From: Nitrospirota bacterium
GTDB lineage: Bacteria; Nitrospirota; JACRHL01
Length of the DNA: 64,000 nucleotides
Reading direction: 5' to 3'
Assembly: GCA_016212085.1 (NCBI GenBank)
Contig: JACRHL010000006.1
Location: forward strand, 1-64,000
The notes beneath the pieces were generated by a model, which saw only the letters and a list, made by a program, of their open reading frames with translations, was not told the DNA's origin and did not search any database. Within the stretch, counting starts at the first letter, position 1. Every line of letters begins with the position of its first letter. Positions 19,354-20,244 of this stretch are shown piece after piece. Made by a program: the position numbers and the translations under genes.

Positions 19354-19432
19354 GACCAGATAACACCCACGGCCCGCGTCCAGGGGCGTCAAGTGGCTGT
19401 GCAGGCAATGATTGATTGCGGAGGTGGAGCAG

Positions 19433-19615
19433 ATGGGCGCGACACGCAAGAGCACTCTTAAGGCCGGGAACCTCAGGTCTGGGGCGGGAAACCAGCCCGC
19501 AACCGCGTCCAGGACGATCAACCCCGCCCCCAAGAAGGGCAAGCTCGACAGCAAGACCATCAAGCGCGCGGTGGATCAGGTCATCTCGTCCCGCACGGGC
19601 AAGAAACCTGCCTGA
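19433..19615 (+). CDS. Small basic protein upstream of TIR-like protein
   Basis: 60 residues, strongly basic and Ser/Thr-rich (MGATRKSTLKAGNLRSGAGN, then KKGKLDSKTIKRAVDQVISS, ending RTGKKPA). The last 30 residues could form a helix. GGAGGTGGAGCAG immediately before the ATG is a strong ribosome site. The partner gene begins 8 bp after the stop, so the two are a transcription unit. The family is not recognised. It might be a nucleic-acid-binding or immunity partner of the downstream protein. A similar small Lys-rich protein is encoded at 53812-53970. Confidence 0.7.
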   Translation: MGATRKSTLKAGNLRSGAGNQPATASRTINPAPKKGKLDSKTIKRAVDQVISSRTGKKPA

Positions 19616-19623
19616 GCCGCCCC

Positions 19624-20244
19624 ATGGCGGCGAGGGGATACGCCAGCAACGTTTTCATCAACTGCCCGTTCGACGACGCATACCTCGCGCTGCGGAACGC
19701 CATCGTCTTTGCCGTTTTCGATTGCGGCTTCACACCCCGGTGTGCCCTGGAGGAGAACAACGGCGGTGACGTGCGCTTCACCAAGATCCAGCGCTTGATC
19801 GCGAATTCCAAGTTCGGCATCCACGACATCAGCCGGACCGGGCCGGACGCCGCGACCGGTCTTCCCCGCTTCAACATGCCCCTGGAGCTGGGTGTGTTCA
19901 TCGGCGCCAGGCACTTTGGAGATGAAACGCAGCAGCGCAAGAACTGCCTGATCCTGGACTTCGAGCCGTATCGTTACCAGGCATTCATTTCCGATATCGC
20001 CGGGAACGATATCCAATCGCACGAAAATAACCCCGAACGGGCCATCGGCCACGTGCGCAACTGGCTGAACGACGCATCCGGCCGGAAGACGATCCCGGGC
20101 GGCCGTGATATCGTCAGGCGCTATCGCCTGTTTCGACAGGAGTTGCCGAATCTGTGCGCGAAAGCCCACGTGACGGTCGATGAGCTCATGTACAACGACT
20201 ACAGCCGCTTTGTCTCGGCATGGCTCAAGGCCAACGAGCGGTAG
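19624..20244 (+). CDS. TIR / nucleoside-deoxyribosyltransferase-like protein of unknown function
   Basis: 206 residues. The N-terminus ASNVFINCPFDDAYLALRNA resembles the first strand and loop of TIR and nucleoside 2-deoxyribosyltransferase-like folds. KIQRLIANSKFGIHDISR and FNMPLELGVFIGARHFG follow; the Glu in PLELG sits where the catalytic Glu of those folds is expected. The C-terminal half (FISDIAGNDIQSHENNPERA, IGHVRNWLNDAS) is helical. No membrane segment. It follows a small basic protein in an apparent operon and has less extreme GC and codon bias than its neighbours, hinting at transfer. An NAD- or nucleotide-processing defence role is plausible but unproven. Confidence 0.7.
   Translation: MAARGYASNVFINCPFDDAYLALRNAIVFAVFDCGFTPRCALEENNGGDVRFTKIQRLIANSKFGIHDISRTGPDAATGLPRFNMPLELGVFIGARHFGDETQQRKNCLILDFEPYRYQAFISDIAGNDIQSHENNPERAIGHVRNWLNDASGRKTIPGGRDIVRRYRLFRQELPNLCAKAHVTVDELMYNDYSRFVSAWLKANER

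What the first reader, a model, noticed from the sequence alone, without database searches (positions are those of the whole stretch)
19433..20244. Two-gene cassette: small basic protein plus TIR/deoxyribosyltransferase-like protein
A 60-residue basic protein with a very strong ribosome site precedes by 8 bp a 206-residue protein with NVFINCPFDDAY and PLELG motifs, suggestive of an NAD- or nucleotide-cleaving fold. Composition differs from the neighbours. A compact effector plus regulator or immunity pair in a housekeeping region is a plausible undescribed defence cassette.
Basis: inference. Interest (0 to 1): 0.62.

Follow-up and report, generated by a model that had tools for sequence, protein, structure and literature searches.

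The report
TIR-fold enzyme with small docking partner
This is a compact two-gene unit found patchily across many bacterial phyla: a predicted nucleotide- or NAD-cutting enzyme that is almost never found without a small partner protein, whose short shared motif is elsewhere fused to known anti-phage immune enzymes, which points to an undescribed bacterial defence module.

Summary
A 60-aa basic ORF (19433-19615, strong ribosome site) precedes by 8 bp a 206-aa ORF (19624-20244), in a patch of low GC for this window. The 206-aa protein has no family match, but its AlphaFold2 model (pLDDT 88) has the TIR/NDT fold (DNPH1 Z 12.2, SPARTA TIR-APAZ Z 11.9, AbTir Z 11.5), and an invariant Glu (E88) opens the helix that carries the catalytic Glu in that fold. 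At least 436 relatives exist across many phyla, on plasmids and in prophage-like contigs.

The small protein is a real partner defined by a ~30-residue motif. In 22 whole genomes 26 of 31 motif hits lie next to the enzyme. In 85 Poribacteria genomes all 40 intact enzyme genes have an adjacent partner, while half of the 80 motif hits lack an intact enzyme. The motif is carried on different bodies: basic tails, DUF2188 (PADLOC candidate PDC-S16), a GIY-YIG-like domain, an unknown 605-aa protein and, in five genomes, a CBASS cyclase. Some relatives sit beside Thoeris, retron or restriction genes; this window's copy does not. Best reading: an undescribed conflict/defence effector controlled by an interchangeable adaptor. 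Catalysis, docking and defence are inferred, not shown.

The parts
19420..19428 (+). Shine-Dalgarno-like GGAGGTGGA just before the ATG of the small gene
   Evidence: sequence
19433..19615 (+). small partner protein, 60 aa: basic tail plus docking motif
   Evidence: motif E 1.8e-10 in own genome
19508..19603 (+). partner motif SRTINPAPKKGKLDSKTIKRAVDQVISSRTGK, the part shared by the partner types
   Evidence: whole-genome motif search, place G000:C23:19508-19603
19624..20244 (+). TIR/NDT-fold protein, 206 aa; no own Shine-Dalgarno, probably translationally coupled
   Evidence: AlphaFold2 pLDDT 88; PDB fold matches; 59-row alignment
19660..19674 (+). NCPFD motif (residues 13-17) after the first strand; N13, P15, D17 invariant
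19885..19887 (+). codon of invariant E88 in PRFNMPLELG, near the start of the helix after the third strand: candidate catalytic glutamate
   Evidence: invariant in 59 of 59; helix 86-98 after strand 64-68 in the model; catalytic role inferred by topology

Best explanation
A two-gene conflict module. The 206-aa protein is a TIR/NDT-fold enzyme that probably cleaves the N-glycosidic bond of NAD+ or another nucleotide, using E88. The 60-aa protein is its obligate partner: its ~30-residue motif docks on the enzyme, and the rest (here a basic tail, elsewhere a helical-hairpin repeat, DUF2188, a GIY-YIG-like domain or a CBASS cyclase) holds the enzyme inactive and/or couples it to an input such as nucleic acid, a nucleotide signal or a phage component. 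When the input arrives the enzyme is released or activated, depletes its substrate and stops growth or phage replication. Shown: fold (predicted model), pairing, swapping of partner bodies, asymmetric loss, mobility, defence neighbours in some relatives. Inferred: catalysis and substrate, physical docking, the sign of control (inhibition or activation), the phage trigger.
For: Fold: AF2 pLDDT 88; VIA-align Z 12.2 / rmsd 2.5 / 127 aligned to DNPH1, 11.9 / 4.5 / 150 to SPARTA TIR-APAZ, 11.5 / 2.7 / 130 to AbTir, 10.7 / 2.6 / 119 to an NDT (rows within 1 are tied); Foldseek's top rows are SPARTA TIRs, E 4.5e-4. Partner: a motif HMM from 23 seeds finds, in 73 non-seed loci, 38 hits at E<=0.01, 34 of them adjacent to the enzyme gene, although adjacent ORFs are only 429 of 16,468. 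In 22 whole genomes 26 of 31 motif hits are adjacent. Poribacteria, 85 genomes: both 42, motif only 5, enzyme only 3, neither 35 (Fisher 9e-15, not corrected for phylogeny); 38 of 40 intact enzyme genes are adjacent to a motif hit, and the other two have a diverged motif gene (L206) and a DUF2188 gene (L207); 40 of 80 motif hits lack an intact enzyme. Swapping: motif fused to DUF2188 (PDC-S16 1e-20), a GIY-YIG-like domain, a 605-aa protein, and a CBASS cyclase (PADLOC 1e-127, PF21654 3e-10) in five genomes. Context: ThsB and TIR proteins (L097), retron VI RT (L093), Mrr nuclease (L098), DNA methyltransferase beside 12 Poribacteria loci, TM0106 nuclease (L103); conjugative plasmids. Docking hint: in a stop-read-through model the motif has pLDDT about 78-91 although its linker is under 50; pTM 0.81.
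Against: No activity, toxicity or phage test exists. The window copy has no defence neighbours. In four Planctomycetes the pair holds a fixed place between dihydroorotate dehydrogenase and trpS, which looks vertical. No sequence family links it to TIR or NDT. The cyclase fusions were seen only in Poribacteria. Defence enrichment was not measured against random regions. The docking hint rests on pLDDT/pTM only; no contact map was available.
Confidence: 0.6

Rival explanations
1. Nucleotide-pool housekeeping: the enzyme is a DNPH1/NDT-like hydrolase that cleans or salvages modified nucleotides, and the small protein is a stabilising or localising subunit, with no role in conflict.
For: DNPH1 is at the top of the structural list (Z 12.2, rmsd 2.5, 127 aligned). 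Housekeeping surroundings in the window, and a fixed site between dihydroorotate dehydrogenase and trpS in four Planctomycetes.
Against: Patchy even among near relatives (absent from all 3 same-family genomes, 3 of 61 genomes in all). On conjugative plasmids and viral-contig records. Partner bodies include a CBASS cyclase. Frequent decay of the enzyme gene while the partner stays.
Confidence: 0.17
2. A plain toxin-antitoxin pair: the enzyme is a toxin and the small basic protein an antitoxin that may also repress the operon; persistence is selfish and phage defence is secondary or absent.
For: Order small-then-enzyme, apparent coupling, basic tail, enzyme always with partner but partner often without intact enzyme, plasmids.
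Against: In Poribacteria the partner follows the enzyme and can be a 420-605 aa protein or a cyclase, unusual for an antitoxin. No DNA-binding domain is recognised in the window's partner.
Confidence: 0.16
3. The TIR-fold protein is a non-catalytic sensor or scaffold and the interchangeable partner (cyclase, GIY-YIG-like, nucleic-acid binder) is the effector.
For: The partner body varies while the TIR-fold protein is constant.
Against: Polar residues of the putative pocket are invariant (N13, D17, E43, D68, S70, E88). The minimal partners, including the window's, have no recognisable enzymatic domain.
Confidence: 0.05

Closest known systems
DUF4062 / Swarozyc TIR-like NADases (PMC13174449)
   Same: TIR/NDT-like fold with a conserved catalytic Glu, outside the classical TIR families, patchy and widespread; shown in that paper to protect by NAD+ depletion.
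   Different: Swarozyc carries its sensing part as an auxiliary domain in the same chain. Here the enzyme is a bare domain with a separate, swappable partner, and PF13271 does not match it.
SPARTA short Argonaute TIR-APAZ
   Same: Best Foldseek match; a TIR-fold effector controlled by a partner.
   Different: No Argonaute or APAZ domain; the partner is a small motif protein.
DNPH1 / nucleoside 2-deoxyribosyltransferase (PF05014)
   Same: Same fold at Z 10.6-12.2, with a Glu at the start of the helix after strand 3.
   Different: No sequence match to PF05014. Obligate small partner and defence-linked relatives.
CBASS
   Same: In five Poribacteria genomes the partner motif is fused to a CD-NTase cyclase encoded next to the enzyme or its remnant.
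   Different: The window has no cyclase beside the pair, and the enzyme has no known second-messenger-binding domain.
Effector-associated adaptor domains of NTP-dependent conflict systems (PMC7159879, PMC8195603)
   Same: A small shared adaptor couples effectors to different modules (from titles, abstracts and general knowledge of these papers).
   Different: Here it is a ~30-residue motif linked to one enzyme family. Analogy only, no homology tested.
PADLOC candidate PDC-S16 (DUF2188, PF09954)
   Same: Many partners in relatives are DUF2188, with or without the motif.
   Different: The window's partner has no DUF2188, and the enzyme matches none of the PADLOC models.

Membership tests
TIR domain (PF01582 / PF13676) | match to a TIR sequence profile | tested here: not met
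   no Pfam match up to E 1; profile search of PDB sequences finds no TIR
TIR domain (PF01582 / PF13676) | flavodoxin-like TIR fold | tested here: met
   AbTir Z 11.5 (rmsd 2.7, 130 aligned), SPARTA TIR 11.9 (4.5, 150), SARM1 TIR 10.7 (2.8, 122)
TIR domain (PF01582 / PF13676) | NAD+ hydrolysis by a conserved Glu | not testable with these tools
   invariant E88 at the expected topological position; activity unknown
Nucleoside 2-deoxyribosyltransferase / DNPH1 (PF05014) | match to the PF05014 profile | tested here: not met
   none in own genome
Nucleoside 2-deoxyribosyltransferase / DNPH1 (PF05014) | NDT/DNPH1 fold | tested here: met
   Z 12.2, rmsd 2.5, 127 residues to 8rpt
DUF4062 / Swarozyc | match to PF13271 | tested here: not met
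DUF4062 / Swarozyc | auxiliary sensor domain in the same chain | tested here: not met
   206-aa protein: one domain plus two C-terminal helices
CBASS | CD-NTase cyclase in the operon | tested here: not met
   none next to the window copy; present as a partner fusion in five Poribacteria
Toxin-antitoxin system | two small, tightly linked co-directional genes | tested here: met
   8-bp gap, no own Shine-Dalgarno for the second gene
Toxin-antitoxin system | toxin gene not kept without antitoxin gene | tested here: met
   Poribacteria: all 40 intact enzyme genes have a partner next to them
Toxin-antitoxin system | toxicity neutralised by the partner | not testable with these tools
   needs expression experiments
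PDC-S16 / DUF2188 | DUF2188 domain in the small protein | tested here: not met
   window small protein: no match

The most novel reading that the evidence does not exclude
A previously undescribed and widespread immune module in which one TIR/NDT-fold effector is plugged, through a shared ~30-residue docking motif, into interchangeable sensors (a disordered basic tail, helical repeats, DUF2188, a GIY-YIG-like domain, a CBASS cyclase), so that the motif is a general connector between nucleotide-signalling and NAD/nucleotide-cleaving immunity.
Probability: 0.4. Interest if true: 0.8.

Novelty: new variant of a known kind. Interest (0 to 1): 0.64.

Why it matters
The enzyme family matches no model in Pfam, NCBIfam, PADLOC or PHROGs although it occurs across many phyla, so it is probably invisible to current defence finders. 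The partner motif ties it genetically to CBASS cyclases in five genomes, gives a concrete handle for finding further systems, and makes a simple prediction: the enzyme needs the motif.

Tried and rejected
Chance small ORF: rejected. Empty-site test in same-family genomes: not possible, because the flanking UPF0182 and YaiI genes lie on different contigs there. Sequence link to DUF4062 by profile comparison: only two usable sequences, uninformative. PF05014 search in relatives: only weak partial hits, none over the cut-off. Phage records (INPHARED): no match. Rfam search for a retron RNA at L093: nothing convincing. Literature: no paper found on the family; papers naming DUF2188 did not look relevant from titles and abstracts. 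No formal defence-enrichment test against random regions was run.

Full report
1. Observation. GGAGGTGGA sits just before the first ATG and nothing similar precedes the second, so the second gene is probably translationally coupled. GC is 61.5% against 70.7% for the window, the 1.6th percentile of segments of that size. Neighbours are a UPF0182 membrane protein upstream and a YaiI-type protein and a glyoxalase-like protein downstream, named here from their sequence only.

2. The 206-aa protein. No match in Pfam, NCBIfam, PADLOC or PHROGs nor in PDB sequences by profile. A scan of 84,980 species genomes gave 436 relatives from exact 8-residue seeds, hence a lower bound; the best 80 are 50-68% identical and come from Planctomycetes (including Scalindua and Brocadia types), Gemmatimonadota, Latescibacterota, Chlorobi, Poribacteria, Acidobacteria, Proteobacteria, Verrucomicrobia, Nitrospirae, Cyanobacteria and Rubrobacter. 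It is also on 17 plasmid records, 8 of them predicted conjugative, and on seven viral-contig records, at least some integrated, but on no phage record. Among the window's relatives only 3 of 61 genomes have it (this genome included), one as a remnant with a stop, and the three same-family genomes lack it. AlphaFold2 with 59 rows gives pLDDT 88, pTM 0.88. Against the PDB, Foldseek's first five rows are SPARTA TIR-APAZ chains (E from 4.5e-4), and VIA-align gives DNPH1 Z 12.2 (rmsd 2.5, 127 aligned), SPARTA TIR 11.9 (4.5, 150), AbTir 11.5 (2.7, 130), SARM1 TIR 10.7 (2.8, 122), NDT 10.7 (2.6, 119), MilB 10.6 (3.0, 130) (rows within 1 are tied). Invariant residues include N13, P15, D17, E43, R51, D68, S70, PRFNMP, E88 and G90. 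E88 lies near the start of the helix after the third strand, the place of the catalytic Glu in NDT/DNPH1 and TIR enzymes (topology argument from knowledge of those folds, not a superposition of residues).

3. The small protein is a partner, not a passenger. Reading the ORFs next to each relative showed a recurring motif, roughly R-[TVI]-[VI]-K-x-[AP]-[PA]-K-x-G-x-[VIL]-x4-[IAV]-x-x-[AV]-V-x-x-V. An HMM from 23 seeds, applied to the other 73 loci, gives 38 hits at E<=0.01 of which 34 adjoin the enzyme gene; adjacent ORFs are 2.6% of all. The seeds were picked because they were adjacent, and some non-seed loci are near copies of seeds, so the whole-genome test is the stronger one: in 22 genomes the motif model (39 sequences drawn from such loci) gives 31 hits at E<=0.01 and 26 adjoin the enzyme gene; the window's genome has exactly one, this one (E 1.8e-10).

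4. Partner order and body vary, the motif stays. Outside Poribacteria the partner gene usually precedes the enzyme gene; in Poribacteria it usually follows. The rest of the partner is a basic disordered-looking tail (the window), repeats of an 'AASxAAKxLxxPxTSKxAKSAAGSALSQ' type that the model folds as a helical hairpin (pLDDT 88-95 for most of it), DUF2188 before or after the motif, a GIY-YIG-like domain (weak, MUG113 E 0.09), a 'KVGRDAKTGRFIS' tail, an unknown protein of about 605 aa, or a CBASS cyclase. The cyclase fusion is not a single event: motif plus full cyclase occurs in L060, L184, L185, L187 and L189 (65-83% identical to L060), four with the enzyme upstream and one with an enzyme remnant. 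A more distant enzyme subfamily (about 34-42% identity: L096, L097, L176-L178; also L207) is preceded by DUF2188-like small proteins without the motif (the DUF2188 match was run for L097 and read by eye in the others), so DUF2188 is an alternative partner.

5. Loss asymmetry. In 85 Poribacteria genomes the motif occurs in 47 and the enzyme in 45, both in 42, neither in 35 (Fisher 9e-15, phylogeny not corrected). Of 40 intact enzyme genes 38 adjoin a motif hit; fetching the other two showed a slightly altered motif gene just downstream (L206, 1652-1834) and a DUF2188-like gene upstream (L207). Of 80 motif hits, 40 adjoin an intact enzyme, 17 a broken or partial one, and 23 none. Assembly breaks will inflate 'broken' and 'none', but they would also create partnerless enzymes, and no intact one was found. 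This is what one expects if the enzyme is harmful or useless without its partner.

6. Context. Twelve Poribacteria loci lie next to a large DNA methyltransferase family whose L060 member has type IIG/PglX similarity. L097 has two ThsB-type TIR proteins and a TIR-TM protein around the pair; L093 has a retron type VI reverse transcriptase; on plasmid L098 an Mrr-type nuclease follows; on L103 a TM0106 RecB-like nuclease follows; orphan motif proteins sit by a RiboL-PSP HEPN protein (L124) and a DprA/PsyrA-like protein (L127). Against this, four Planctomycetes keep the pair between dihydroorotate dehydrogenase and trpS, and the window copy is in a housekeeping stretch.

7. Docking. A second AlphaFold2 job used loci where partner and enzyme are in frame, reading the stop as Gly (a computational device only). 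In L004 the motif (44-66) has pLDDT about 78-91 although the linker after it is below 50, and pTM is 0.81 for 283 residues. This is compatible with the motif resting on the enzyme, but contacts could not be inspected.

8. Mechanism. Best reading: a TIR/NDT-fold glycosidase held or aimed by a partner that docks through the motif and senses through its variable part. Whether the partner inhibits (antitoxin-like) or activates (adaptor-like) is open; the loss asymmetry favours inhibition, the cyclase and 605-aa bodies favour an adaptor. It works like known TIR effectors such as Swarozyc (DUF4062; PMC13174449) but is not a member: that profile does not match and the sensor is a separate chain.

Noticed in passing
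L060 5655-6929; L184, L185, L187, L189: Partner motif fused to the N-terminus of a CBASS CD-NTase cyclase next to the TIR-fold gene or its remnant: a possible CBASS-like variant with a motif-linked TIR/NDT effector.
   Followed up: partly
L093 3284-5906: XRE-like regulator, retron type VI reverse transcriptase, motif protein with AGSALTQ repeats, TIR-fold gene and a second repeat protein lie together near an integrase-like gene.
   Followed up: partly
L093 5652-5906; L014, L017, L061: An 'AASxxLxxxxTSKxAKSAAGSALSQ' repeat recurs in small basic proteins; the related stretch of L004 is predicted as a confident helical hairpin. It also occurs as a separate gene without the motif (L093).
   Followed up: no
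L021, L024, L039, L188, L205: Unknown partner protein of about 400-605 aa with the motif at its N-terminus and no Pfam or PADLOC match.
   Followed up: no
L127 1495-2450: DUF2188-motif protein followed by a DprA/PsyrA-like protein without the TIR-fold gene, suggesting the motif may serve other effectors too.
   Followed up: no
L084: Another genome of the same phylum holds a remnant of the TIR-fold gene with an internal TGA.
   Followed up: no
L020, L023, L053, L069: In Planctomycetes the pair is fixed between dihydroorotate dehydrogenase and trpS, pointing to stable vertical inheritance there.
   Followed up: partly
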